From Magnetococcales bacterium DCbin4 (GTDB taxonomy: Bacteria > Pseudomonadota > Magnetococcia > Magnetococcales > UBA8363): a DNA stretch of 36,817 nucleotides. The stretch spans positions 1 to 36,817 of the forward strand of contig PEAN01000036.1 in assembly GCA_002753735.1 (NCBI GenBank), written 5' to 3'. Under the pieces are notes generated by a model. That model had not been told where the DNA came from. It worked only from the letters and a program-made list of their open reading frames with translations, and did not search any database. The position numbers were made by a program, and so were the translations under genes. This document shows, piece after piece, positions 5,579 to 36,669 of this stretch; position 1 is the first letter of the stretch; every line of letters begins with the position of its first letter.

Positions 5579-6630
5579 CAAACCGGCTCAGCCTCACGTC
5601 CCGGATTGGCCGTCTTGCTGCCGGCCCCATGTTTGGGGGGCAAACCCGCTTTTTCCCGCAAGGCATCTTCAAGCAGACGAAGCAACCCAGGATTCTCCTT
5701 GAGATATTTTTTGGCATTCTCCCGGCCCTGGCCGATCCGTTCACCATTGTGGGAATACCAGGCACCCGATTTTTCCACCAGATTTTGTTCCACCGCCATA
5801 TCCAGAACTTCTCCCTCCAGAGAAATCCCTTCGCCATAATTGATGTCGAATTCGACACTGCAAAATGGCGGTGCCATCTTGTTCTTGACCACCTTGACCT
5901 TGGTGCGGCTGCCGACCACCTGGTCACGATCCTTGATCGAGTTGACCCGGCGAATGTCCAGACGGACCGAGGCATAGAACTTCAGGGCATTGCCGCCGGT
6001 CGTGGTCTCGGGCGAACCGAACATCACCCCGATTTTCATGCGAATCTGGTTGATGAACAAAACAATGGAGCGCGAACGGGAAATGGAACCCGTCAGTTTA
6101 CGCAACGCCTGGGACATGAGCCGGGCCTGAAGACCCATATGGGAATCGCCCATCTCCCCTTCGAGTTCCGCCTTGGGCGTCAACGCCGCCACCGAATCGA
6201 CCACCACCAGATCCACGGCCCCGGAACGAATCAGCATATCCACGATTTCCAGCGCCTGTTCACCGGTATCAGGTTGGGAAATCAACAGTTCATCGACATT
6301 GACCCCCAGCTTGCGGGCATATCCCGGATCGAGGGCATGTTCCGCATCGACATAGGCCGCCACCCCGCCCTGGCGTTGGATTTCCGCCGCCACATGCAAT
6401 GCCAGGGTCGTCTTGCCGGAGGCTTCCGGGCCGAACACTTCACACACGCGCCCCCGGGGCAGACCACCGATGCCCAGGGCGATATCCACACCCAATGAAC
6501 CCGTGGACACCGTGGCCACATCGGCGATCACCTGGTCACCCATCCGCATGATGGAGCCTTTGCCATACTGGCGTTCAATCTGTGCCAGGGCCGCTTCCAG
6601 TGCTTTGGCTTTTTGTGGATCCATGGACAT
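5578..6630 (-). CDS. recA: Recombinase A
   Basis: RecA forms the ATP-dependent filament for strand exchange and SOS induction. The 350-residue protein has Walker [10 protein letters not shown] at residues 67-75, Walker B in [10 protein letters not shown] near 140, the L2 loop [16 protein letters not shown] near 205, and the C-terminal NPGLLRLLE region. The start was set at the ATG at 6630 ([15 protein letters not shown]). GAGGAG lies 7 bases upstream, and the family N-terminus begins there; a longer reading from 6729 adds an unrelated, arginine-rich stretch. The stop overlaps the parC start by one base. Confidence 0.98.
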
Positions 6631-6744
6631 CTCAAGGCTCCTCTCGTAGCAATCGGATACGTTGCGTGACGTGTACCCTACCGGTGGTTCCGACCTCGCG
6701 CGTACCGGACGAACCCTTGTCGGCACCACGCCTCACTTCCAGGC

Positions 6745-6773
6745 TACATTAACAGATTTATTCAAATTGACAA
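6745..6773 (-). promoter_or_regulatory. Possible recA-parC promoter
   Basis: An A/T-rich island in an otherwise GC-rich gap carries, on the minus strand, a -35-like TTGTCA (6773-6768) and a weak -10-like AATGTA or TAATGT 16-17 bases on. It lies about 115 bases upstream of the recA start. I found no LexA box that I would defend. Confidence 0.3.
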
Positions 6774-6898
6774 TGGCGCGATCACGACCGCATCCATGCC
6801 CGATTGCCGCCAACCCGGCAACCGGCTACCATGAGACCGGTCAACCAATCGGGTTGATCATATGAGGTTTCAAGTCAACCATCTCAAGGATACCAACC

Positions 6899-7936
6899 AT
6901 GGATATTGCCGAACTCCTCGCGTTCAGCGTCAAAAATAAAGCTTCCGACCTCCACCTTTCCGCCGGCATGCCCCCCCTGATCCGGGTCGATGGTGACATT
7001 CGCCGCATCAATGTCCCACCCCTGGAACATGAAGCAGTCCATGACATGGTCTACGACATCATGAACGACAAACAGCGCAAGGAATACGAGGAAAGCCTGG
7101 AGGCGGACTTCTCCTTCGAAGTGCCCAAACTGGCCCGTTTCCGCGTCAATGCATTCAACCAGAACCGTGGTGCCGCAGCAGTCTTCCGCACCATCCCCTC
7201 CGATATCCTGAGCCTGGAACAGTTGGACTGCCCCGCCATCTTCAAGGAATTCGCCGAAACCCCCCGTGGCATCGTCCTGGTGACCGGTCCCACCGGCTCC
7301 GGCAAATCGACCACACTGGCCGCCATCATCGATTACAAAAACAAAAATGAGTATGGCCATATCCTGACCATGGAAGATCCCATCGAATTTGTCCATCAGT
7401 CCCACAAATGCCTCATCAACCAGCGCGAAGTCCATCGCGATACCCACAGTTTCGCCAATGCCCTCCGTTCCGCCCTGCGCGAAGATCCCGATGTCATCAT
7501 GGTCGGCGAAATGCGGGACCTGGAAACCATCCGTCTGGCATTATCGGCGGCAGAAACGGGTCACCTGGTGTTCGGAACCCTCCATACCACTTCGGCGGCC
7601 AAAACCATCGACCGGATCGTCGATGTCTTTCCCGCCGCGGAAAAAGACATGATCCGCACCATGCTCTCCGAATCCTTGAGAGCGGTGATCTCTCAAACCC
7701 TGCTCAAGAAAAAGGGGGGCGGTCGCGTGGCGGCCCACGAAATTCTCGTCGGAACCCATGCCATCCGCAACCTGATCCGCGAAAACAAGGTGGCCCAGAT
7801 GTACTCCTCCATCCAAACGGGTCGCAACTTTGGCATGCAGACTTTGGAACAATGCTTGCAAGAGTTGCTGGACAAAAAATTGATCACCAAGGAGGCCGCC
7901 AGGGAAAAGGCCAATGTCAAGGACTCCTTCAAATAG
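6899..7936 (+). CDS. pilT: Type IV pilus retraction ATPase PilT
   Basis: PilT is the hexameric ATPase that depolymerises type IV pili and so drives twitching. The 345-residue length is standard. It has the N-terminal KASDLHLSAG segment, Walker A GPTGSGKST near residue 132, the Asp box with MEDPIEF, Walker B GEMRDLETIRLAL, and the His box HLVFGTLHTTSAAKTIDR. It also has the PilT-specific C-terminal AIRNLIRE motif needed for retraction, which the two other paralogues here lack. AAGGA precedes the ATG. It is divergent from recA and is followed by two FlgO-like lipoproteins that are probably co-transcribed. Confidence 0.96.
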   Translation: MDIAELLAFSVKNKASDLHLSAGMPPLIRVDGDIRRINVPPLEHEAVHDMVYDIMNDKQRKEYEESLEADFSFEVPKLARFRVNAFNQNRGAAAVFRTIPSDILSLEQLDCPAIFKEFAETPRGIVLVTGPTGSGKSTTLAAIIDYKNKNEYGHILTMEDPIEFVHQSHKCLINQREVHRDTHSFANALRSALREDPDVIMVGEMRDLETIRLALSAAETGHLVFGTLHTTSAAKTIDRIVDVFPAAEKDMIRTMLSESLRAVISQTLLKKKGGGRVAAHEILVGTHAIRNLIRENKVAQMYSSIQTGRNFGMQTLEQCLQELLDKKLITKEAAREKANVKDSFK

Positions 7937-7975
7937 ATCAACCTCAAGAACGTACTGACGTGCGGGGAACGCCTC

Positions 7976-8623
7976 ATGAAGAAATTGCTTCCACCAACAT
8001 CCATGGCCTGTCTGTTCCTGGCCGCAAGCCTCGGCGGCTGTATGGTACCACCGCCACCGCCACCGCCGGTTCCTGTGCTTCCCATGGGTAGTACCCCGGT
8101 GCTCAATGAGCTTCTCCCGCCAAAGATCGACGCTGAAATCGACCTGATCCGCATGAGTCATGCCGTAACCGATGCCCTGGTCGCGGAATTGAGAAAAAAT
8201 CATCCCTCCTTTCACCGCCGCAAACCCATTCTGGTCGCCAGTTTCGTGGATCGCAACACCCTGGATACCAGTTCGGAACTGGGACTTCTGATTTCCGATC
8301 ATGTCTCATCGCGGTTCACCCAGCAGGGATTCCGGGTGGTGGAACCCAAACTCAGAGAAAATCTCGCCATCCGCAAGGACAAAGGCGATTTCATCCTGTC
8401 GCGGGATGTGGAAAAACTGGCGCAGGAAAACAAAGCCTATGCGGTCGTCGTCGGCACCTATACCGAAACCCGCGACCTTCTGGATTTCACTGCAAAACTC
8501 ATCCAGATCGTCGATCGGCAGGTTCTGGCTTCGGTTGATGCCAAGATTCCCCTGGGAACCACCACCCGCGATCTGCTGTTGAATACAGGTGGTGGCACCC
8601 CGATGTCCATCGTGGAACGCTGA
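7976..8623 (+). CDS. FlgO-like outer-membrane lipoprotein (first copy)
   Basis: A 215-residue secreted lipoprotein: a short signal peptide ends in a lipobox (SLGGC, Cys about residue 22), followed by a run of seven prolines. The mature part matches the FlgO domain, with PILVASFVDRNTLDTSSELGLLISDHVSSRF, then QGFRVVEPKLRENL and the VVVGTYTETRDLLDFTAKLI strand pair. FlgO proteins were first described with flagellar outer-membrane rings in vibrios, but the domain is widespread. Next to pilT it may support an envelope structure for pili; that role is inference. It is about 40 bases downstream of pilT on the same strand. Confidence 0.75.
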   Translation: MKKLLPPTSMACLFLAASLGGCMVPPPPPPPVPVLPMGSTPVLNELLPPKIDAEIDLIRMSHAVTDALVAELRKNHPSFHRRKPILVASFVDRNTLDTSSELGLLISDHVSSRFTQQGFRVVEPKLRENLAIRKDKGDFILSRDVEKLAQENKAYAVVVGTYTETRDLLDFTAKLIQIVDRQVLASVDAKIPLGTTTRDLLLNTGGGTPMSIVER

Positions 8624-26197: not shown

Positions 26198-29100
26198 ATG
26201 CGTTGGCTTCACCTGTCCGATCTACACATGGGCGCCCCAGGCCGATCCCAATGGTGGCAGGTGCATCAGGAATTTAAAAAAAGCATTCTCCAAGATGTTG
26301 CTGACAAAGGACATCCCGATGTGATTTTCATCACCGGGGATTTGACCAACCGTGGAGCCAAAAAGGAATTTGAACTGCTTGACCAATTCCTGAACGAACT
26401 GCGTGACTGGTTACGCCCACAAAACCAGGCCGAACCCCTCATCATCCCCGTTCCGGGTAATCATGACTTGGTTCGACCGAAAGGGATGGCCTCTCTGAAA
26501 TTCAATGTCCTGAAAAATTTCAACATGGGTCGGGAAGATCCCCAAATAGCCTTCCTGCTGGACACCCTCTGGAACAAGAAAAAAACACAATTTTTCAAAC
26601 CTCTCTTTGGCAATTATCAAGAGTGGCTGAAACGTTCCATCCTTCCCCCTTTGGAGCAACGTGGCATCAAGTTTACCCCCTCCCACTTCCCTGGAGATTT
26701 GCTGGTTCATCTTGAGCTGCCGGACAAAATGCCCCTGTCGGTGGTGGGACTCAATTCGGCGTGGTTGGCGCTGGATGATACGGCCGATGGACGGTTGGAA
26801 GTGGCCACGGAACAATTACAGGCACTCGGACCAATACTGGAAGATCGGGCCGCCCTGCTGCTCATGCATCATCCCCCCGCATGGTTGTCGGAAGCGGCGC
26901 GGGATCGGTTTCGGGAGACCCTCTATACCCCGGACCGGTTTTTGGCCTGCCTGCACGGTCACATGCACAAACACCGCACCGAAACCATCGCCATCTCGGG
27001 GGGCAAACCCCGTTGCCACCTCCAGGGGGCCTCTCTGTTCGGTCTGGAAAGGTTTGGCACCCGTAATGAAACCCGACTCATGGGGTACGCCTGGGGTGAG
27101 CTGCAACCGGACAAAACGATTCGCCTTTGGCCCCGAAAACGGGAAGTGACCGGCAACGGCGAAGCCCTGTTCCTGCATGATCCCTCTTTCGGGGCTGAAC
27201 ATCCCGACGGCGTTCCGGTGTGTTCATGGACACCAGGGACCACCTCCCCGCAGGAAACCATCGACCTCTCCCCCTGGCTGCGTTCCCTATTGAGCCGGGT
27301 AGATCATATCAACATCCCGGAAATCTCCAGTAAGGCAGTCTGGGAAAAAAACGTCAACCGTTTCCCCATAGAACGGTTGTTCACCCCTTTAAACATCCGC
27401 CACGAAAACTTGGAAGGTCCTCTTCCCATAGTCAGTTTGCTCCCAAAGCACAAACATCTGCTACTTGAAGGACAACCAGGGTCAGGTAAAAGTACATTTC
27501 TAAAATTTGCTATAACCATGTTTGCCCGTGATGCCCTGGGGATGGAGTGTCCTGACAGCACATCCTGGCGTAAACGGTTTCTCGGTCTGGAAGATCATGA
27601 AACACCCCCGCTCCCCCTATTCCTCCGTCTTTCGGAATTGGCGAATTTTCTGGCCAAGGAGGCCACCGAAAGCCCGAATGATCGTTTTCGCCTGCTCGAC
27701 CTTCTCGACCGCACGACAGATGCCCAGCCTGGGTGGCGGAAGTATTGGGAACAAAAGTTGATTGATGGACATGTCGTCATCCTTTTGGACGGTCTGGATG
27801 AAGTGGATGACGACCTTTTGCGGAAACGGGTATTTGATATCGTCAAAAATACCCTCCTCCATTGGAATCAAACCCGAATCGTGGTCACCAGCCGCCCCTT
27901 TGGGATTTCATTGATGCAAACCTTAGAGATATTCCATGTAGTCATCGAACCCTTCGGCAAGGAAGAAATTAAAGAATTCCTGGAACGATGGATTTCCTGT
28001 TTCTACGGCCATTCGATCAGCGAACATCCAGGTAGTGATGCAATAAATTATGGCGATCGACTGGGCAATGCCATTCTGGAGCGTCCCGCCATCCGCAACC
28101 TCGCCGCCACCCCAATTATTCTCACATGCCTGTGTGCCGTATATAAAGAAGAGCAACTGCCTGAATGGAGGTCCCGATGCTACATGGTGGTCATCGACTG
28201 GCTGCTCTCCTCCCGGAAGCAGATGCGAAGAAATGCAGGCTTCAAAGATGAGTTAACAATACATGCAATAGGATTGCTTGCCTATTCCATGATGTGCGGC
28301 AGTGAGGAAAAAAGTAAACAGACTCTTTGGGATAGGGATCATGCCATCCGTGCAATCGATCCCATCATATCCCGTAAATTTCCCGAACTGTCTGGAGAAG
28401 AACGCCACCAAAAGAAAATTGCTTGGCTCTTTTTTGAATGCCGCAATAGTGGCATCATCGAAGAAGCTGGACTAGGCCATATCCGGTTTTGCCATCTGAC
28501 ATTTCAAGAGTTCATGGCAGCCCAGAAACTTTCCTGGATGGAGGAACATGAAGCATGGTTCATTATCAAAACCCGACTGGACAACCTGCTATGGTGGGAA
28601 ACTATCGACATGCTCACGGGATGCCTGTTGAAAGAGGGGAATGGACCGATGGACCGGTTGCTGGAACGGGTATTGACCTTGCTTGGTCCCAACCCATCCC
28701 TGGCCGACAACGCTCGAGTTGCCGGAATTACGGGACGACTGCTCGCTTCCATACCCACGAAAAACTACCATCCACCACGGGAAATCGAGGAAAAATTCCG
28801 AGAACTTCTGGAACAGGCGATGGCCATCTTTACCCAGGAAGGTGCCACCAAAGTCCCCATCCAGACCCGTATTGCCGCTGCCGAAGCCATAGGGCAGGGA
28901 TGCGACCCAAGATTAAACCAAGATCAGTTGATTGAGGTCCCTGGCACGGGTTGGAAGTTGGGGAAATATCTTGTTTCAGTTCAGGAATTTCAACGGTTCG
29001 TTGAACAGGGAGGGTATGATGAACCTCAATGGTGGAGTAAAACCTGGCCCCTTCGGAAAAAACATTCACGAACCAACCCGGAATATTGGGAGACACAAAT

Positions 29101-29617
29101 AAAACATCCCAACCGACCTGTCACCTATGTTTCCTGGTTTGAAGCCATGGCGTATTGCCGTTGGTTGAGCGAACAAAGGGGGAAAACCATATGTCTTCCC
29201 TGCGATACTTTGTGGCAAACGGCAGCAACCTTTTCACAAGGAGACGAATACCCATGGGGAAAGAAGACCCCAACCCCAGAGTTGGCCAATTTTGGCAATA
29301 ATGTTGGTAGTCCGACTCCGGTAGGAATTTACCCTGCAGGTAACGGACCCTTGGGTCATTGTGACTTGGCGGGTAATGTATGGGAGTGGTGCCGAAACCT
29401 CTATGACAATAGCAGTCTTCCTGTCAATGCAACACCATTGGACCCAGAAAATATAACAGAAGGCAGTATCCCATGCGTCAGAGGTGGATCTTGGTCCGGT
29501 CCAGCGTCTTTCGACCAAGCACCGACTTTCCTTAAGGTTGGCTTCCGAAGTGGCTACCCTGCGGAGGAAAGCCTAGGCGCTCTAGGCTTTCGCCTCGCCG
29601 CCCCCGCCAGCCGTTGA
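26198..29617 (+). CDS. Metallophosphoesterase-NACHT-FGE/lectin-fold NLR-like protein (paralogue A)
   Basis: A 1139-residue multidomain protein. Residues 1-330 are a calcineurin-like metallophosphoesterase with all metal motifs: SDLH (7-10), GDLTNRG (47-53), GNHD (87-90), HH (224-225) and GHMH (254-257). Residues 415-620 are a NACHT-type STAND ATPase: Walker A GQPGSGKST (425-433), Walker B ILLDGLDE (528-535) and the TSR sensor (564-566). A helical region follows, then from about 910 an FGE-sulfatase/SUMF1 domain (GNVWEW, CVRGGSW, LGFRLA) without the catalytic cysteine pair, so probably a ligand-binding scaffold. AAGGAA precedes the ATG. The architecture resembles NLR-like conflict proteins: FGE as sensor, NACHT as switch, phosphoesterase as effector. 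That assignment of roles is inference. Confidence 0.85.
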   Translation: MRWLHLSDLHMGAPGRSQWWQVHQEFKKSILQDVADKGHPDVIFITGDLTNRGAKKEFELLDQFLNELRDWLRPQNQAEPLIIPVPGNHDLVRPKGMASLKFNVLKNFNMGREDPQIAFLLDTLWNKKKTQFFKPLFGNYQEWLKRSILPPLEQRGIKFTPSHFPGDLLVHLELPDKMPLSVVGLNSAWLALDDTADGRLEVATEQLQALGPILEDRAALLLMHHPPAWLSEAARDRFRETLYTPDRFLACLHGHMHKHRTETIAISGGKPRCHLQGASLFGLERFGTRNETRLMGYAWGELQPDKTIRLWPRKREVTGNGEALFLHDPSFGAEHPDGVPVCSWTPGTTSPQETIDLSPWLRSLLSRVDHINIPEISSKAVWEKNVNRFPIERLFTPLNIRHENLEGPLPIVSLLPKHKHLLLEGQPGSGKSTFLKFAITMFARDALGMECPDSTSWRKRFLGLEDHETPPLPLFLRLSELANFLAKEATESPNDRFRLLDLLDRTTDAQPGWRKYWEQKLIDGHVVILLDGLDEVDDDLLRKRVFDIVKNTLLHWNQTRIVVTSRPFGISLMQTLEIFHVVIEPFGKEEIKEFLERWISCFYGHSISEHPGSDAINYGDRLGNAILERPAIRNLAATPIILTCLCAVYKEEQLPEWRSRCYMVVIDWLLSSRKQMRRNAGFKDELTIHAIGLLAYSMMCGSEEKSKQTLWDRDHAIRAIDPIISRKFPELSGEERHQKKIAWLFFECRNSGIIEEAGLGHIRFCHLTFQEFMAAQKLSWMEEHEAWFIIKTRLDNLLWWETIDMLTGCLLKEGNGPMDRLLERVLTLLGPNPSLADNARVAGITGRLLASIPTKNYHPPREIEEKFRELLEQAMAIFTQEGATKVPIQTRIAAAEAIGQGCDPRLNQDQLIEVPGTGWKLGKYLVSVQEFQRFVEQGGYDEPQWWSKTWPLRKKHSRTNPEYWETQIKHPNRPVTYVSWFEAMAYCRWLSEQRGKTICLPCDTLWQTAATFSQGDEYPWGKKTPTPELANFGNNVGSPTPVGIYPAGNGPLGHCDLAGNVWEWCRNLYDNSSLPVNATPLDPENITEGSIPCVRGGSWSGPASFDQAPTFLKVGFRSGYPAEESLGALGFRLAAPASR
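29483..29614 (+). other. Candidate hypervariable C-terminal segment, paralogue A
   Basis: Codons from GGSW to the end of paralogue A. The anchors GGSW and LGFRLAA are conserved with paralogue B, while the codons between differ at most positions and include a six-codon length difference. This is where diversity-generating retroelements place their variable region in FGE/C-type-lectin targets. Several codons here (GAG, GAA, CTA) do not end in C, so this copy fits an adenine-mutagenised AAC-rich template less well than paralogue B and may be older. Confidence 0.4.
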
Positions 29618-29652
29618 TTCTTGGTTGTTGTTTTATTGTTTTTTTGTGGGGT

Positions 29653-29671
29653 CCAGGGGCGAAGCCCCTGG
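29653..29671 (+). terminator. GAA-loop hairpin after paralogue A
   Basis: CCAGGGGC and GCCCCTGG form a perfect 8-bp stem closed by GAA, 35 bases past the stop of paralogue A. A degraded version lies at the same place after paralogue B (35931-35949). It could be a terminator, or, by analogy with the hairpins that follow DGR variable regions, a homing determinant. Confidence 0.5.
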
Positions 29672-29682
29672 TCGTTGTAACA

Positions 29683-29996
29683 TGACAAAGCAAAATGACA
29701 AAATGAGCGTTTTTTGTCACTTTTATTGATTTAAAATGGTTTTTTCCACCCTACACATCCATCCCGCATGCCATGATTGTCAAACTCATGAACAAATGTG
29801 TCATCTTGTCAGCACAATGTCAGCAATAGTGACACTTTTGTCCATGAAGAATGACAAACGACGGCCTTTTTTGTACGTCAGAGTGACATTCTGTCCGTTT
29901 AAACTGACAAACTTCCCCTTGAATGACATTTTCGTCACTCTTAATTGACAAAACGTCTGACATTGCCGAACAATGCCTGTCACCGACCCCTTGACA
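29683..29996. repeat. Cluster of 16 TGACA/TGTCA repeats
   Basis: This non-coding stretch contains ten TGACA (starting 29683, 29696, 29830, 29852, 29884, 29905, 29924, 29946, 29958, 29992) and six TGTCA (29715, 29779, 29799, 29807, 29818, 29978). About 0.6 would be expected by chance. Several neighbours are 19-22 bp apart, roughly two helical turns, and the right half is mainly direct TGACA copies often followed by AAAC or TTCT. It ends at the promoter of the following operon. It looks like an iteron-like or regulator-binding array. Confidence 0.6.
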
Positions 29997-30019
29997 TAAG
30001 AAAACAGTCGATCAATATT
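29991..30019 (+). promoter_or_regulatory. Promoter of the three-gene conflict operon
   Basis: TTGACA (29991-29996), a 17-base spacer, and AATATT (30014-30019) in an A/T-rich setting, 63 bases before the first start codon. The -35 is itself the last TGACA of the repeat cluster, so a protein bound to those repeats would compete with RNA polymerase. Confidence 0.5.
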
Positions 30020-30081: not shown

Positions 30082-30936
30082 ATGACCAGTCCTGCCTCCC
30101 CTTCCCCGGCGCCTCTGAACCTTTTTGCCCTGGCCCAGGCCAATGATCCGGCTTTGGAGCGACAATTTGCAGCACAAAGCGCAGGCACGTCCACCAACGC
30201 AACCGCCTTGCGTGACATGAGCGCATTGGTTTTTGCAACGGGAAACGTGACGGTCAACATGCGTATCGATGTCATGAACCAGTTTTTCGCTACCGAGCAC
30301 ATGACCAACATCTACGAGTGGGCGAAAGAACATTCATTGCATCATGGAAGAACACAGGAGGAATTGCTCAGGGAAAAATTGGGACGATGGTATGAACAAC
30401 GCGTAAAATTTGATGAAGCTTTTATTGATGGTAATCAATTTCGCTATGGAGCCTTGAATATTGACAGCCTGGGACCTTCCAAGTTTGGCGACCTTTGCGT
30501 CGTCATCAAAGAACCCTTTTGGGACGATCACCCCGTCGCCTATCTCAAAGGGGACAGTTTGAAAACGTTCATGGACAGTCACCATAATTTATTGGAGGAT
30601 AGGTTACGCGTCTCCGTCTCCAGCAAAGACCGGCGTCACCAAATGATGGCACTCAAACATTCGTCTCACTTGACACAATGGGAGAAAAAAGATTGGCCGA
30701 GAAAAGTTTGTTACACAGATGAATTCGTTGAGGCAATTTTTGTCAAATCATTTACCTCTTCACAGATCCAAGAAGTTCGCATTGATAAGGGCTTGTTTTT
30801 CAGAATGAATAATATCGCTTTCAATAACAACGCAAGAATTCAGTGCACCCCAGAAGAAATATTTCAAGCAAATTCGTTTGAAATCATTAATAAAATATTG
30901 CACCGACTTGGTATACCATTGAAGGTTATTTGTTGA
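30082..30936 (+). CDS. Unknown protein, possible ADP-ribosyltransferase-like effector (DUF3626-like)
   Basis: A 284-residue soluble protein. I do not recognise it with certainty. YGALN (122-126) followed by KFGDLCVVIKE (134-144), and later DEFVEAIFVKSFTSSQIQEVRI (213-234), resemble the layout of DUF3626 proteins. In that layout, and in DarT-type ADP-ribosyltransferases, a catalytic glutamate lies in an E-A-hydrophobic strand before an S-x-x-I-x-x-V/I helix; Glu217 would be the candidate. If so, it could be a toxic effector controlled by the large protein two genes downstream. The N-terminal 50 residues are Ala/Pro-rich and probably disordered. It lies directly before the next gene on the same strand. 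The ATG has only a weak ribosome binding site. Confidence 0.45.
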   Translation: MTSPASPSPAPLNLFALAQANDPALERQFAAQSAGTSTNATALRDMSALVFATGNVTVNMRIDVMNQFFATEHMTNIYEWAKEHSLHHGRTQEELLREKLGRWYEQRVKFDEAFIDGNQFRYGALNIDSLGPSKFGDLCVVIKEPFWDDHPVAYLKGDSLKTFMDSHHNLLEDRLRVSVSSKDRRHQMMALKHSSHLTQWEKKDWPRKVCYTDEFVEAIFVKSFTSSQIQEVRIDKGLFFRMNNIAFNNNARIQCTPEEIFQANSFEIINKILHRLGIPLKVIC

Positions 30937-30942
30937 GTGCCA

Positions 30943-31548
30943 ATGATGATAAAACTTTGCGCAATATCCAAAAAAGATGGCTGGGCTGTCATTCAGACTC
31001 CGGAAGGACTTCGCCTTTTGCGTCCTCCTTACACCGAGGATCAATGCCCTTTCCTCCACGATTCGGATGTCATCCGACTTTTGTCTGAGCCGGGTTTTGA
31101 TGCCGTCATCGAAGAACCCACCATGCCTGACCTGGCCAGCGTCATTACCCATCTCAAGACCACCATGGTCGAAACCAACGCAGAAGAACCTTTGGCGCAC
31201 CCAAAGGAAGTAGGACGTTTTCTTTTACAGACTGCCCCCCCTGATTTCATTCGGCATTCCCTCGAACGAATACAGAATGAACTCCTCCCCCAACGTCAGT
31301 TCATTCCCTCGATCAAAGTTCTGAGAATTCTGGAAGAATCGGACGCAGCCAAAGCGGACCCACTACTGCACGATGATGTAAAGAAACTACTCAATGATGC
31401 GATGGATTCTCTGGAGTCTGATAATAATGACATATCCGGGACAAACATATTGGATTACTTTGCAAGGGCCAGGAAAATACAGACATATCACACACCGATA
31501 TCTGAAGATATTCAGCGTGAGGGTCAAATTCTCAAGCCCGCAGCCTAG
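30943..31548 (+). CDS. Unknown protein between the candidate effector and the NLR-like sensor
   Basis: A 201-residue soluble protein, not recognised. The first 60 residues look like a small beta-rich module (KLCAISKKDGWAVIQTPEGLRLLRPPY); the remainder is mostly helical and acidic. It begins within seven bases of the preceding stop and ends immediately before the next gene, so the three are one operon. A GTG at 30937 is an alternative start. It may be an adaptor or inhibitor linking effector and sensor, but only the position supports that. Confidence 0.6.
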   Translation: MMIKLCAISKKDGWAVIQTPEGLRLLRPPYTEDQCPFLHDSDVIRLLSEPGFDAVIEEPTMPDLASVITHLKTTMVETNAEEPLAHPKEVGRFLLQTAPPDFIRHSLERIQNELLPQRQFIPSIKVLRILEESDAAKADPLLHDDVKKLLNDAMDSLESDNNDISGTNILDYFARARKIQTYHTPISEDIQREGQILKPAA

Positions 31549-31557
31549 GTGCAATGC

Positions 31558-34500
31558 ATGGCAACCTTACAGACCATCGTATTTTATTCCTACAAAGGGG
31601 GCGTTGGACGGACCCTGGCCTTGGCAAGTCTGGCAAAATATCTGGCCCGTGAGGGGAAAAAAACCTTTTTAATCGACTTCGACCTGGAGGCCCCGGGGCT
31701 GCACTATAAACTGAATCTGGTCGAAAAAGTTTCCGGGGGCATGGTCGATCTGCTACACGATTTTGCCACGCACAAAGAAAATCCCGAACAAAAACTTCCG
31801 AAATTGGTGTTGCAGCCTCGTTTTATCGAACAGGAACAAGGACTATGGCCCGGATTTTCCCCCGTGCGATTCCTTGCCGCCGGCAACCCCCGGGATCCCG
31901 GCTATTGGCAGCGCCTCGCCCGATTGAACTGGCATGACATTTTTTATGGCCCCGCCCCATGGGGCGTCCCCTTCTTTGTCGAACTGAAAGAAATCATCCG
32001 CGAATTTTATGATCCCGACTTTCTTTTGATCGACGCTCGTACCGGCGTCACGGAAATCGGAGGGGCAGCCCTGACCCTGATGGCGGATCAGGCAATCTGT
32101 CTTTTTGTCAATAATGATGAAAATATTGAGGGAATCCGGTCGATCATGCGCAGTGTCCGCGCCACCATGCGGCCCCCTGGAGCCGAGCTGATCGGAGTGA
32201 TCCCCGTCGTGACCCGCATTCCGGAAAAAATGACTTCCGAAAACGACCTGATCACGAAACTCAAAGAAAAGTTCAATGAACCCACGAAACACCTTGCCGC
32301 CACCCTGAACATCAACAAAATTTTCCTCCTTCATACCTATCCGTCCCTGGAATTGAACGAGTTCCTTGAAGGAAAAATCAATATTCCATCCGACAGCGCC
32401 CTGGGGATGGACATGGAAAAATTGTTTGAATTTTTGTCTCCCAAACCACCCATACCACCCGATCGCCCCCTGCGTTGGCTTCACCTGTCCGATTTGCACA
32501 TGGGCGCCCCTGGCCGATCCCTTTGGTGGCAGGTGCATCAGGAGTTTAAAAAAAGCATCCTTGAAGAGGTCAAGCGCAAAGGGCCTCCCGATGTGATTTT
32601 CCTCACCGGGGATTTGACCTGGAGGGGGCAACCTGAAGAATTTCAATTCCTGGACCATTTTCTTAAAGAGTTATCAAGCTGGTTGCATACCCCGGGTCAC
32701 CCCGATCCATTGATCCTCCCCGTTCCGGGCAATCATGACCTGGTTCGCCCCAAGGGAATGGCGTCCCTCCCCTACGCCATTTTGAAAGAATTCAACAAAG
32801 GTCGGGAACATCCCGAAATCGCCATCCTGCTGGACACCCTGTGGAAAGAAAATGACGCAACCTACTTCACCCACATCTTTAAACATTATCAAGAGTGGCT
32901 GGAACGTTCCATCCTCCCCCCCCTGAAACAATGCGGCATCACGTTCGCCATTTCCCATTTCCCCGGAGACATGTTGGTTCACCTTGACCTGCCGGGGAAA
33001 ATGCCCCTGTCGGTGGTAGGACTCAATTCGGCATGGCTGGCGCTGGATGATACGGCCGATGGACGGTTGGAAGTGGCCACGGAACAATTGCACACCCTGC
33101 TCCGCCCCGGACCGGGAGGGGAATCGCCCTTGAGTGTGCTGGAAGATCGGGCCGCCCTGCTGCTCATGCATCATCCCCCCTCATGGTTTTCGGAAGCGGC
33201 GCGGGATCGGTTTCGGGAGACCCTCTATACCCCGGACCGGTTTTTGGCCTGCCTGCATGGTCACATGCACAAACACCGCACCGAAGCCATCGCCATCTCG
33301 GGGGGCAAACCCCGTTGCTACCTCCAGGGGGCCTCTCTGTTTGGTCTGGAACGGTTTGGCACCCGCAATGAAACCCGACTCATGGGGTACGCCTGGGGTG
33401 AACTGCAACCGGACAAAACGATTCGCCTTTGGCCCCGGAAACGGGAAGTGACCGGCAACGGCGAAGCCCTGTTCCTGCATGATCCCTCTTTCGGGGCTGA
33501 ACATCCCGACGGCGTTCCAGTGTGTTCATGGACACCAGGGACCCCCTCCCCGCAGGAAACCATCGACCATTCCCCCTGGCTGCGTTCCCTGCTGGACCAG
33601 GTCGATCACATCAACATCATGGGGATCAGCTCCAAGGCAGGACGGGGACAAAGCGCCAACCGCTACCCCATCGAACAGTTGTTCACCACCCTGCGCAGCC
33701 GCGGCGAAACCACGGACGGAAATCTATCCCTGGCCGATCTGTTCCCCAAACACAAACATCTGCTCCTCGAAGGACAACCGGGGGCGGGCAAGAGTACCTT
33801 TCTTAAACTTGCCGCCACCATGCTCGCCCGTGATGCCCTGGGGATCGAGTGTCCCGACAGCACCTCCTGGCGCAAACGGTTTCTCGGACTGGAAGATCGT
33901 GAATCCCCCCCGCTCCCCCTGTTCCTCCGTCTTGCAGAATTGGCAAATTTCCTGACCAGGGAGGCCACCGCCAGCCCGAATGATCGTTTTCGCCTGCTCG
34001 ACCTCCTCGACCGCACGACGGATGCCCAACCGGGGTGGCGGAACGATTGGGAACAAAAATTGAACGGCGGACAGGTCGTCCTTCTTCTGGACGGTCTGGA
34101 TGAAGTGGACGACGACTCTTTGCGGGAACGGGTGTTCGCGATTGTCAAGAATGCCCTCCTCCATTGGAAGCAAACCCGGATCGTGGTCACCAGCCGTCCC
34201 TCCGGGGTGGAATTGATGCAAAACATGGGTTTTTTCCATGGGGTGATCGAACCCTTCGGCAAAGAGGAAATCAAGGAGTTTTTGGATCGATGGATCGCCT
34301 GTTTCTACGGCATTTCCTTCAACGAACCTCCCGGGGGCGAGGCGGGGCGTTATGGTGCTCAACTTGAAAAAGCCATCCTGGACCGCCCCACCATCCGCCG
34401 ACTGGCCACCAACCCGGTCATGCTCACCTGCCTGTGTGTCGTGCATTGGAATGAAGGACAACTGCCCGAAGGGCGATCCCGGGTTTATATGGCGGTCATC

Positions 34501-35904
34501 CGTTGGCTGCTCTCCTCCCGAAAAACTTTACGGGAAAAGGCAGGCTTTAACAATGGATTCACGGAACGCGCCATGGTCGTGCTGGCCTATGCCATGATAG
34601 GCGGCAGCAGGGGAGGAAAAAAACTGTCAATTTGGGATTGGGAAGAGGCCATCCGGGCAATCGATCCCATCGTGGCACGCGATTTTTCCGGGTTATCCGA
34701 GGAAGAACACCGCCATAAAGGGAGGGCCTGGCTCCGTTTTGAATGCCTCAACAGTGGCATCATCGAAGAAGTGGGGCTGGGCCGCATCCGGTTTTGGCAT
34801 TTGACCTTTCAGGAATTCATGGCGGCCCGGCAACTTTCCTGGATGGAGGAACAGGAAGCATGGTCCGTGATCCAACCCCGACTGGACAATCTGCAATGGT
34901 GGGAAACCATCGGCCTACTCCCGGGATGCCTGTTGGACGGGGGTCATGGACCGATGGACCGGTTGCTTGAACGGGTATTGACCCTGCGCGGTTCCACCCT
35001 ATCCCTGGCCGACAACGCCCGGGTCGCCGGGATCATGGGACGACTGCTCGCCCCCATGCCCGCACTGAACTACCAACCACCACGGGAAATCGAGAAAAAA
35101 TACCGGGATCTCCTGGAGCAGGCGATGGCCATCTTTACCCGGGACGGAGCAGCCAAAGTCCCCATAAAAACCCGCATCGCCGCCGCCGAAGCCTTGGGAC
35201 GGGGAGGCGACCCGAGATTGAACCGGGAGCAGTTGATCGAAGTCCCCGGCACGGGGTGGAAGCTGGGAAAATATTTGGTCACGGTCCAGGAATTTCAACA
35301 GTTCGTAGAACAGGGAGGGTATGAGGAACCGCGATGGTGGAACGAAACCTGGACCATTCGGCAAAAGCATTCATGGACCAGCCCAGAGAATTGGGAAACC
35401 CAGACGGAACACCCCAACAGGCCCGTCATCCGCGTTTCCTGGTTTGAGGCCATGGCGTATTGCCGCTGGTTGAGCGAACAGCGGGAAGCAACCATACGTC
35501 TCCCCTGCGAAACTTTATGGCAAACGGCAGCGACCCCTTTGCAAGGAGGTGAATACCCCTGGGAAAATACCGAACCAACGCCGGAGTTGGCCAATTTTGG
35601 TAACAGCGTTGGCAGTCCGACGCCAGTGGGGCTTTACCCGGCGGGTGACGGTCCTTTGGGGCATTGTGACTTGGCGGGTAATGTTTTGGAGTGGTGCCGA
35701 AACCTGTATAAGAACGGTCAGCTACCGGTCGACGCAACGCCGTTGAACCCCAAGGATATCACCAAAGATGATAGCCTATGTGTCAGGGGCGGGTCCTGGT
35801 ACGGCCCGGCTTCCGACCTCCGGGTCGGCAGCCGCGGCGGCATCCGTGCGGGCATCCGCCGCGACCTTCTAGGCTTTCGCCTCGCCGCCCTCATCAGTCG
35901 TTGA
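31558..35904 (+). CDS. MinD-like ATPase-metallophosphoesterase-NACHT-FGE NLR-like protein (paralogue B)
   Basis: A 1448-residue protein. Residues 1-290 form a ParA/MinD-like ATPase whose deviant P-loop is KGGVGRT (13-19), with Arg in place of the usual Lys, followed by LIDFDLEAPGLHY. From about 304 it repeats the architecture of paralogue A: metallophosphoesterase (LSDLHMG, GDLTWRG, GNHD, GHMH), NACHT ATPase (GQPGAGKST near 740, LLLDGLDEVDDD near 842, TSRPSG), a helical stretch and an FGE/lectin domain from about 1224 to the end. The domains are 80-97% alike by eye to paralogue A. Paralogue B has a 12-residue insertion (PGPGGESPLSV region) in the phosphoesterase. The start at 31558 (MATLQTIVFYSYKGGVGRT) is preferred over the GTG at 31549 next to the upstream stop. 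KGGVGR ATPases are known in bacterial conflict systems. Confidence 0.87.
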   Translation: MATLQTIVFYSYKGGVGRTLALASLAKYLAREGKKTFLIDFDLEAPGLHYKLNLVEKVSGGMVDLLHDFATHKENPEQKLPKLVLQPRFIEQEQGLWPGFSPVRFLAAGNPRDPGYWQRLARLNWHDIFYGPAPWGVPFFVELKEIIREFYDPDFLLIDARTGVTEIGGAALTLMADQAICLFVNNDENIEGIRSIMRSVRATMRPPGAELIGVIPVVTRIPEKMTSENDLITKLKEKFNEPTKHLAATLNINKIFLLHTYPSLELNEFLEGKINIPSDSALGMDMEKLFEFLSPKPPIPPDRPLRWLHLSDLHMGAPGRSLWWQVHQEFKKSILEEVKRKGPPDVIFLTGDLTWRGQPEEFQFLDHFLKELSSWLHTPGHPDPLILPVPGNHDLVRPKGMASLPYAILKEFNKGREHPEIAILLDTLWKENDATYFTHIFKHYQEWLERSILPPLKQCGITFAISHFPGDMLVHLDLPGKMPLSVVGLNSAWLALDDTADGRLEVATEQLHTLLRPGPGGESPLSVLEDRAALLLMHHPPSWFSEAARDRFRETLYTPDRFLACLHGHMHKHRTEAIAISGGKPRCYLQGASLFGLERFGTRNETRLMGYAWGELQPDKTIRLWPRKREVTGNGEALFLHDPSFGAEHPDGVPVCSWTPGTPSPQETIDHSPWLRSLLDQVDHINIMGISSKAGRGQSANRYPIEQLFTTLRSRGETTDGNLSLADLFPKHKHLLLEGQPGAGKSTFLKLAATMLARDALGIECPDSTSWRKRFLGLEDRESPPLPLFLRLAELANFLTREATASPNDRFRLLDLLDRTTDAQPGWRNDWEQKLNGGQVVLLLDGLDEVDDDSLRERVFAIVKNALLHWKQTRIVVTSRPSGVELMQNMGFFHGVIEPFGKEEIKEFLDRWIACFYGISFNEPPGGEAGRYGAQLEKAILDRPTIRRLATNPVMLTCLCVVHWNEGQLPEGRSRVYMAVIRWLLSSRKTLREKAGFNNGFTERAMVVLAYAMIGGSRGGKKLSIWDWEEAIRAIDPIVARDFSGLSEEEHRHKGRAWLRFECLNSGIIEEVGLGRIRFWHLTFQEFMAARQLSWMEEQEAWSVIQPRLDNLQWWETIGLLPGCLLDGGHGPMDRLLERVLTLRGSTLSLADNARVAGIMGRLLAPMPALNYQPPREIEKKYRDLLEQAMAIFTRDGAAKVPIKTRIAAAEALGRGGDPRLNREQLIEVPGTGWKLGKYLVTVQEFQQFVEQGGYEEPRWWNETWTIRQKHSWTSPENWETQTEHPNRPVIRVSWFEAMAYCRWLSEQREATIRLPCETLWQTAATPLQGGEYPWENTEPTPELANFGNSVGSPTPVGLYPAGDGPLGHCDLAGNVLEWCRNLYKNGQLPVDATPLNPKDITKDDSLCVRGGSWYGPASDLRVGSRGGIRAGIRRDLLGFRLAALISR
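35788..35901 (+). other. Candidate DGR variable region, paralogue B
   Basis: Between GGSW and LLGFRLA nearly every codon ends in C or is a fixed non-adenine codon: TAC GGC CCG GCT TCC GAC CTC, then AGC CGC GGC GGC ATC, then GGC ATC CGC CGC GAC. This NNC pattern is what adenine-directed mutagenesis of AAC codons in a template repeat would give. The order of fixed positions (GGSW-x-x-P, LR-x, R-x-x-x, R, GFRLA) matches DGR targets with the FGE/lectin fold. No template repeat or reverse transcriptase is in the window. Confidence 0.5.
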
Positions 35905-36087
35905 TTTTTGGTTGTTGTTTTTTTGTGGATCCAGGGACGAACCCCATGGTCAATCAAGATGACAAAACGTCCGACATGTTCAAACGTAACGAAACGTACC
36001 ATAAATACATAAGCGCAGATCTTGATCAATCCAAGAATAGATCTTATCCTGATCCGACAGGAGATTAATCATTGCTCGTATTCATTG
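35905..36087. other. 3' flank of paralogue B, related to the flank of paralogue A
   Basis: No gene is seen. The first 65 bases follow the 3' flank of paralogue A (TGATT.TTGGTTGTTGTTTT, then a decayed CCAGGGAC-GAA-CCCCATGG hairpin at 35931-35949). TGACAAAACGTCCGACAT at 35960 nearly repeats TGACAAAACGTCTGACAT at 29946. The duplication of the two large genes therefore included downstream DNA. Confidence 0.6.
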
Positions 36088-36340
36088 ATGAACAGCAGAC
36101 ATCGCAAAACCCTTGAGGCCATCTTCTCGCTTCCGGTTCCCGCATCGCTCGCATGGAACAGGATTGAAGCGTTGTTCGTAGCGCTCGGAGCCGAGGTGAT
36201 CGAAGGCAGCGGTTCACGGGTCGGATTCAAGCTGCATGGCGAACGCGCCGACTTTCAGTCCGCATCCGGGCAAAGAAGCCAAGCCCTATCAAGTCCGCGC
36301 AACCCGCGACTTTCTGGAACGAATTGGAGTCAGGCCATGA
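36088..36340 (+). pseudogene. hicA: hicA toxin gene, frameshifted
   Basis: The N-terminal part reads MNSRHRKTLEAIFSLPVPAS and continues through GSGSRVGFKLHGERADF in one frame. The rest of HicA (SPHPGKEAKPYQVRATRDFL, then ERIGVRP and a stop at 36340) is in another frame. Restoring two bases between 36257 and 36258 would turn TTT-CA-GT-CCG into the usual F-H-R-P-H-P of this HicA branch, so a two-base deletion is the simplest cause; it removes the conserved His-Arg. The reading frame after the shift runs into hicB in frame, giving a spurious fusion. A functional toxin is unlikely, so the antitoxin would be unopposed. Confidence 0.75.
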
Positions 36341-36669
36341 CCCCCATGATGCACAAGGGCTATGCCGCCCGGATCGAATACAGCGACGAGGACGAATGCT
36401 TCGTTGGTCGGGTCGCGGGCATCAAATCGATCATCACCTTCCACGGTGAGTCCGTCTCCGAAGTGCGACAGGCATTCCGAGAGGCCATCGATTTCTATCT
36501 GGAAACCTGCGCGGCCAGAGGCGAAAGTCCTGACAACCCCTTCTCCGGCAAGATCATGACGAGCATTCCGCCGGAACTGCACGCCCGGGCCATCTCGGTG
36601 GCCGAGACCCTTGGCAAAAGTCTCAATCAGTTCGTTGCCGAAGCCATCGAACGGGCGGTGAAATCCTGA
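36337..36669 (+). CDS. hicB: HicB-family antitoxin
   Basis: A 110-residue antitoxin with the partial RNase-H-like HicB domain (GYAARIEYSDEDECFVGRVAGIKSIITFHGESVSEVRQAFREAIDFYL) and a C-terminal ribbon-helix-helix-like DNA-binding segment (TSIPPELHARAISVAETLGKSLNQFVAEAI). The ATG at 36337 overlaps the hicA stop by four bases, the normal coupled arrangement; ATGs at 36346 and 36349 are alternatives. It looks intact although its toxin partner is broken. Confidence 0.88.
   Translation: MTPMMHKGYAARIEYSDEDECFVGRVAGIKSIITFHGESVSEVRQAFREAIDFYLETCAARGESPDNPFSGKIMTSIPPELHARAISVAETLGKSLNQFVAEAIERAVKS

What the first reader, a model, noticed from the sequence alone, without database searches (positions are those of the whole stretch)
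29683..29996. Sixteen TGACA/TGTCA pentamers in 314 bp upstream of the conflict operon
This is about 25 times the chance frequency. Runs are spaced 19-22 bp (for example 29884, 29905, 29924, 29946; and 29779, 29799, 29818), so proteins would bind one face of the helix. The last copy is the -35 of the operon. It might be a cooperative repressor array, an iteron-like origin, or a sensing element; a related TGACAAAACGTC block lies after paralogue B.
Basis: seen in the sequence. Interest (0 to 1): 0.6.

Follow-up and report, generated by a model that had tools for sequence, protein, structure and literature searches.

The report
TGACA array beside retroelement hypermutation target
The cluster of sixteen short TGACA words is the tail of a gene once rewritten by a hypermutation machine (a diversity-generating retroelement); relatives that still carry the machine have the same cluster after every target gene that shows fresh mutation, so it is probably a docking site telling the machine where to write.

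Summary
In detail: 16 TGACA/TGTCA in 29683-29996, about 28 times local background. The reading "promoter array of the downstream conflict operon" is not supported: homologues of that operon's first gene lack it.

The array belongs to the gene before it. NACHT protein A (26198-29617) ends in a formylglycine-enzyme-like (C-type lectin fold) domain carrying a decayed variable repeat (VR) of a diversity-generating retroelement (DGR), followed by a GC hairpin (29653-29671) and the array. In five relatives, mostly from the same genus, two convergent targets, each VR-hairpin-array, flank a core: HTH protein, Avd, template repeat (TR), reverse transcriptase (RT). The HTH gene occurs in exactly those 5 of 61 genomes; 20 other DGR loci without it have no array. 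Where the RT is intact, the ten targets with hairpin and array, two of them remote, differ from the TR almost only at adenines (5/908 other sites); the four lacking both have drifted (41/365).

Best reading: a DGR target-site module whose TGACA words are bound by the DGR's own Xis/BldC-like HTH protein, marking genes for mutagenic homing. Binding is inferred. In this genome the core is gone, so the array is a relic. I found no report of such arrays.

The parts
26198..29617 (+). Paralogue A: calcineurin-like phosphoesterase - NACHT - FGE-sulfatase (C-type-lectin-fold) protein; former DGR target gene, owner of the array
   Evidence: Pfam; VR and IMH at its 3' end
29501..29612 (+). Decayed variable repeat (VR) of A, with the IMH-like 3' end GGCTTTCGCCTCGCCGCC at 29585-29602
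   Evidence: Pattern shared with VRs of relatives; 21 non-A differences from the TR of relative G006
29653..29671 (+). Intact GC hairpin CCAGGGGC-GAA-GCCCCTGG, the DGR target hairpin/cruciform element
   Evidence: same element at all intact targets of relatives; compare Guo 2011
29683..29996 (.). Array of 16 TGACA/TGTCA words
29683..29719 (.). Proximal part of the array (TGACA, TGACA, TGTCA) next to the hairpin; with the hairpin and T-rich spacer it lies in a 117-column stretch 91% identical to the flank of the G006 C16 target
29991..30019 (+). Sigma-70-like match (TTGACA-17-AATATT) upstream of the B operon; uncertain
30082..30936 (+). First gene of the downstream operon (284 aa, no family); homologues lack an array upstream
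30937..31548 (+). Second gene of the downstream operon (203 aa, no family)
31549..35904 (+). Paralogue B: ParA-like ATPase - phosphoesterase - NACHT - FGE-sulfatase protein; a second former DGR target
   Evidence: 1454-codon counterpart at G006 C16 with intact hairpin
35872..35889 (+). IMH-like 3' end of the VR of B (6 non-A differences from G006 TR)
35931..35949 (+). Degenerate hairpin of B (CCAGGGACGAACCCCATGG)
35960..35978 (+). Remnant of the array of B (TGACAAAACGTCCGACATG)

Best explanation
The array is the distal part of a DGR target-site module: variable repeat with IMH, GC hairpin, then 8-16 TGACA half-sites. Shown: this layout recurs at DGR targets of related Magnetococcales and tracks one DGR lineage that carries an extra HTH gene in its Avd-TR-RT core. 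Inferred: the HTH protein (Xis/BldC-like winged helix plus an Avd-like helical bundle) binds the TGACA words cooperatively beside each VR and brings or stabilises the RT-Avd-cDNA complex there, also at targets elsewhere in the chromosome; on the core side it may also regulate its own operon. In the window's genome the core has been lost, so the array here is a surviving landing site without its machine.
For: Anatomy: every VR/IMH-like site with a perfect GC hairpin 43-54 nt downstream of the IMH pattern also has 8-16 TGACA/TGTCA in the next 500 bp (10 complete sites, plus one cut by a contig end with 3 in 205 bp); template repeats have 0-1. DGR identity: adenine-specific TR/VR differences, RVT_1 and bAvd matches. 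Lineage link: the HTH gene is in 5 of 61 genomes, each with arrays on both sides of the core; 20 other DGR-like RT loci (32-40% RT identity), none with the HTH gene and several with Avd, have no TGACA array. The module TGTCA-N6-10-TGACA-N3-TGACA occurs 12 times in 61 genomes, 11 of them at these loci; the reversed control gives 0. Activity link: with intact RT, hairpin+array VRs (n=10) have 0-1 non-A differences each, VRs without both (n=4) have 2-15 (Mann-Whitney P=0.002). Constraint: TGACA columns are 88% (HTH side) and 75% (RT side) identical between species, other columns 50% and 38%. HTH model: N-terminus like BldC 6amk (rmsd 1.2) and Xis 4j2n; C-terminus like 2gsc and Avd 8ub7/4dwl. BldC binds direct repeats cooperatively (PMC5859096).
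Against: No binding is shown. Hairpin and array come and go together, so the activity link cannot be credited to the array alone; at the dead G006 C6 locus an array without an intact hairpin accompanies partly drifted VRs (4-5 non-A). The lineage link may rest on a single evolutionary event (five genomes, two genera). BPP-1 needs only about 35 bp downstream of VR (PMC3240598). The structural matches have no significant E-value (best 0.02); helical bundles match widely; HTH_17 is under its Pfam cut-off. The alignment statistic is biased towards words the aligner can match; in a whole-word control TGACA ranks first on the HTH side (0.69) but only fourth on the RT side. In the window the VR has decayed more than the array, which is unexplained.
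Confidence: 0.55

Rival explanations
1. DNA structure: the inverted TGACA/TGTCA words form AT-rich hairpins or cruciforms that help the GC hairpin extrude, with no dedicated protein.
For: Eight core-flanking arrays fold as single-stranded DNA far better than shuffles (z -3.7 to -7.2); the first unit is often a long inverted pair (CAAAATGACAAAA / TTTTGTCATTTTG).
Against: The remote target at G026 C56 has a fresh VR (0/91 non-A differences) and 15 words but its array does not fold better than shuffles (z -1.15); the window array gives 0.46 and -2.07. Direct steps of 8 bp recur (13 of 51 direct steps) and cannot form hairpins with each other.
Confidence: 0.2
2. Operator: the array is an autoregulatory site for the HTH-Avd-RT operon, spread to other targets by gene conversion or duplication of the target 3' end.
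For: On one side the array runs up to the HTH start codon; Xis- and MerR-like proteins are often regulators.
Against: The other array of each core lies between the convergent RT and target genes, where no promoter is needed; remote targets without the core keep arrays.
Confidence: 0.15
3. Promoter or operator array of the downstream B operon, as first proposed, possibly after exaptation in this genome.
For: Position just upstream; TTGACA -35-like match; A kept hairpin and array while the other targets of this genome lost theirs.
Against: Homologues of the operon's first gene lack the array; the array is explained by the gene upstream.
Confidence: 0.06
4. End of a transposon of the Tn7/CAST or MITE kind.
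For: TGACA/TGTCA-rich ends are recalled from type V-K CAST (memory, a lead only); arrays flank the core as inverted repeats; MITE-like repeats have been described at Thiohalocapsa DGRs (PMC10907252).
Against: No TniQ or Mu-transpos_C match in the genome (weak, as no control genome rang); the arrays follow VR and hairpin at single remote genes. Target-site duplications were not searched for.
Confidence: 0.04

Closest known systems
Diversity-generating retroelement target site (VR, IMH, hairpin/cruciform), prototype phage BPP-1 (PMC3240598)
   Same: VR with adenine-only differences from TR, IMH at the 3' end, GC-rich 7-9 bp stem hairpin downstream, C-type-lectin-fold target, RT and bAvd
   Different: An array of 8-16 TGACA words follows the hairpin, whereas BPP-1 needs only about 35 bp downstream of VR; hairpin loops are not GRNA; the core carries an additional HTH gene
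Conflict-system DGRs with NACHT/C-type-lectin targets (PMC10907252)
   Same: NACHT or TIR-NACHT proteins with a DGR-diversified C-terminal domain; several targets, some remote
   Different: MITE-like repeats reported there match insertion-sequence ends; here the words sit in a fixed place after each hairpin
BldC / Xis direct-repeat-binding winged-helix proteins (PMC5859096)
   Same: Predicted N-terminal fold of the HTH protein; a site made of repeated short words
   Different: Here the words occur in both orientations with steps of 8, 12, 14 and about 20, not regular 9-10 bp direct repeats; the protein has an extra helical bundle

Membership tests
Diversity-generating retroelement (relatives' loci) | Reverse transcriptase with an Avd gene | tested here: met
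   RVT_1 41.6 bits (cut-off 29.6); bAvd 44.0 bits (cut-off 40) for the G006 protein, 35.8 (below) for G004
Diversity-generating retroelement (relatives' loci) | TR/VR pair differing at TR adenines | tested here: met
   Ten VRs: 10-19 A differences each, 5/908 non-A sites in total
Diversity-generating retroelement (relatives' loci) | IMH and downstream hairpin | tested here: met
DGR target (window paralogue A) | VR-like 3' end with IMH and hairpin in a C-type-lectin-fold gene | tested here: met
   FGE-sulfatase domain, IMH and hairpin
DGR target (window paralogue A) | Adenine-specific differences from a cognate TR | tested here: inconclusive
   No TR of this lineage was identified in the genome; against the G006 TR 21 non-A differences, that is, decayed or from another TR
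DGR target (window paralogue A) | Functional RT/Avd core of this lineage in the same genome | tested here: not met
   No HTH match in the genome; no close RT, best is 34-35% identity, a different DGR without array. The assembly is 96% complete. A likely scrap of the lost RT 3' end lies in L093
HTH_17 / MerR-Xis-BldC winged helix (accessory protein) | Pfam HTH_17 score over cut-off | tested here: not met
   21.1 bits against 27; the fold match to 6amk and 4j2n is suggestive only
Avd fold (C-terminal half of the HTH protein) | Four-helix bundle related to Avd | tested here: inconclusive
   8ub7_B Z 11.4, 4dwl Z 9.8, 2gsc Z 12.3, within the range of unrelated bundles; no profile match
Tn7/CAST transposon end | TnsB/TniQ genes in the genome | tested here: inconclusive
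   No match, but no control genome rang either
Pho box | TGTCA direct repeats at 11 bp | tested here: not met
   Only one 11-bp direct step in the window array (29807-29818); family steps are 8, 12, 14 and about 20

The most novel reading that the evidence does not exclude
A DGR lineage with its own sequence-specific targeting system: an HTH-Avd-like accessory protein recognises TGACA arrays placed after each VR and so licenses chosen immune-receptor-like genes, including remote ones, for hypermutation.
Probability: 0.4. Interest if true: 0.8.

Novelty: new variant of a known kind. Interest (0 to 1): 0.62.

Why it matters
How DGRs choose their target genes beyond homology and a hairpin is poorly known. 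A defined array plus a co-inherited putative DNA-binding protein would give a testable addressing mechanism for directed hypermutation of bacterial immune-type receptors, and a handle for finding remote targets in genomes.

Tried and rejected
Promoter array of the B operon: homologues lack it. Tn7/CAST end: no TniQ/TnsB match, and the layout fits DGR targets better. Pho box: spacing wrong here (L007 in the same genome is pho-like). Iteron origin: nothing found that supports it; not tested further. Other TGACA-rich places in the genome (L001, L006-L008) are less dense and were not among the VR sites found. HTH relatives outside this group: genome contigs gave only three Magnetococcales records and viral contigs none. 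Plasmids hold no relative of the 284-aa protein. A profile comparison of the HTH protein's C-terminal half with Avd found nothing. HTH profile against PDB sequences: no credible match. Literature: no held paper names both DGRs and Magnetococcales, and the passages read in five papers on DGRs describe no such arrays; Wu 2018 is not held. A first version of the TR/VR count failed on a slicing error and was redone.

Full report
Observation. Sixteen TGACA/TGTCA words lie in 29683-29996. Background in the same genome is 1.82 per kb, so 0.57 are expected in 314 bp, 28-fold fewer; the densest other stretch in 126.6 kb has 6. No pentamer reached 16 in 5000 Markov sequences of the region. The 19-22 bp spacing is real but only part of the pattern.

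What it is next to. Homologues of the first gene of the downstream operon in relatives have no array upstream. A search for TGACA clusters in 60 relatives found dense arrays in G026 beside FGE-sulfatase genes, and these had the marks of a diversity-generating retroelement (DGR). The window genes A and B share the same 3' end (GGCTTTCGCCTCGCCGCC...), which is the IMH end of a VR. The group is Magnetococcales, as shown by three public records holding the same loci.

The module. For VR/IMH-like sites in the window and in fetched loci, I counted words in the 500 bp downstream. All ten complete sites with a perfect GC hairpin (CCAGGG...CCCTGG) 43-54 nt downstream have 8-16; an eleventh is cut by a contig end (3 in 205 bp). 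Sites without it have 0-3; the exceptions are the two convergent targets of the dead locus L099, which share one array. Template repeats have 0. In L048, L098, L100, L101 and L102 two convergent targets flank a core of about 2.8 kb: HTH protein (221-234 aa), bAvd-like protein, TR and RT. The targets of L048 are NACHT-FGE and TIR-NACHT-FGE proteins.

It is a DGR. Over 114 TR positions, the ten hairpin+array VRs in the four genomes with intact RT differ from their TR at 10-19 adenines but at only 5 of 908 other sites. Two of these are remote targets, G026 C56 (0/91) and G006 C16 (1/91), the latter being the counterpart of window gene B. Four VRs in the same genomes without hairpin and array have 2, 10, 14 and 15 non-A differences (41/365; P=0.002 by Mann-Whitney). 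In G005, whose RT match contains two stop codons, hairpin+array VRs have 6 and 9. So the hairpin+array mark goes with recent homing where the enzyme works. Hairpin and array are confounded.

Link to the HTH gene. It occurs in 5 of 61 genomes, all with arrays on both sides of the core; a remnant with a stop codon sits in the dead locus L099. Twenty other DGR-like RT loci (19 fetched plus L096), RT 32-40% identical, lack it and have no such array; TGACA reaches at most 4 in 200 bp there. The module TGTCA-N6-10-TGACA-N3-TGACA is found 12 times in 61 genomes, 11 at these loci, control 0. These genomes belong to two genera, so this may be one evolutionary event.

What the words look like. The extended consensus is roughly AAA(G/A)TGACAAA. 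Divergent pairs are almost all 12-14 bp apart (23 of 25); direct steps are mostly 8, 11-14 and 19-22. Between species the TGACA columns are 88% and 75% identical against 50% and 38% elsewhere; this statistic favours any word the aligner can match, and in a whole-word control TGACA ranks first on the HTH side and fourth on the RT side. Core-flanking arrays fold well as single-stranded DNA (z -3.7 to -7.2), but the array of the fresh remote target G026 C56 (z -1.15) and the window array (0.46, -2.07) do not, which favours protein sites over structure.

The HTH protein. AlphaFold2 model, mean pLDDT 71. The N-terminal part matches BldC on DNA (6amk_B, 45 columns, rmsd 1.2) and Xis (4j2n); the C-terminal bundle matches 2gsc and Avd (8ub7, 4dwl). 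None of these E-values is significant and helical bundles match widely. Avd and 2gsc are described as homologous (PMC10053308). BldC binds direct repeats as head-to-tail multimers (PMC5859096).

The window's genome. It has no HTH match and no close RT. It has another DGR-like RT locus (L096) without array. L093 holds a decayed hairpin, array words and a stretch resembling the RT 3' end of G006, so the core was probably present and lost. The six other VR-like ends found in this genome have lost hairpin and array to different degrees and show 6-28 non-A differences from the G006 TR; A has 21 yet keeps a perfect hairpin and 16 words. The flank of A (stop codon to the third word and a little beyond) is 107/117 identical to that of G006 C16, while the 284-aa proteins are 46% identical. 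Constraint, recent exchange or a new use could explain this; I cannot tell which.

Mechanism. Shown: anatomy, DGR nature in relatives, co-occurrence with the HTH gene, and association of hairpin+array with maintained VRs. Inferred: binding of TGACA by the HTH protein, recruitment of the RT-Avd-cDNA complex, licensing of remote targets. I put the anatomical part at about 0.93 and the binding/recruitment part at about 0.45. The known hairpin requirement comes from BPP-1, where nothing beyond about 35 bp downstream of VR is needed (PMC3240598), so an array is an addition to the known scheme.

Noticed in passing
L100, L101, L102 against L098, L048: The HTH-Avd-TR-RT core lies in opposite orientation relative to the flanking, collinear target genes: it has inverted at least once, presumably between the inverted VR-hairpin-array repeats (blastn).
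   Followed up: partly
L096 (G000:C8), RT at 6843-8216 minus: A second, different DGR-like locus in the window's genome, with FGE-type genes and no TGACA array.
   Followed up: partly
L102 (G005:C107): A decaying DGR: the RT match contains two stop codons and the Avd match is split, yet hairpins and arrays remain; an inverted-repeat MITE-like insert (GGATCCCCGCTTTCGCGGGGATGACA) sits in one array.
   Followed up: partly
L099 (G006:C6), 6625-7106: Two convergent targets with a shared array and only a remnant of the HTH gene between them: a deleted core.
   Followed up: partly
L093 (G000:C60), after 10486: Decayed hairpin and array words followed by a stretch resembling the RT 3' end of G006: a likely relic of the lost core.
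   Followed up: partly
window 29618-29735 and L053 1-190: The non-coding flank of A is 107/117 identical to that of the G006 C16 target although the 284-aa proteins of the two species are 46% identical.
   Followed up: partly
window 36022-36669: HicB-family protein gene after paralogue B.
   Followed up: no
L007 1501-1540 (G000:C78): Pho-box-like TGTCA repeats before a response-regulator-like gene.
   Followed up: no
L008 1395-1575 (G000:C146): Repeats of GTGACAAGAAAATTATCGCGTTACA beside what looks like a tRNA gene.
   Followed up: no
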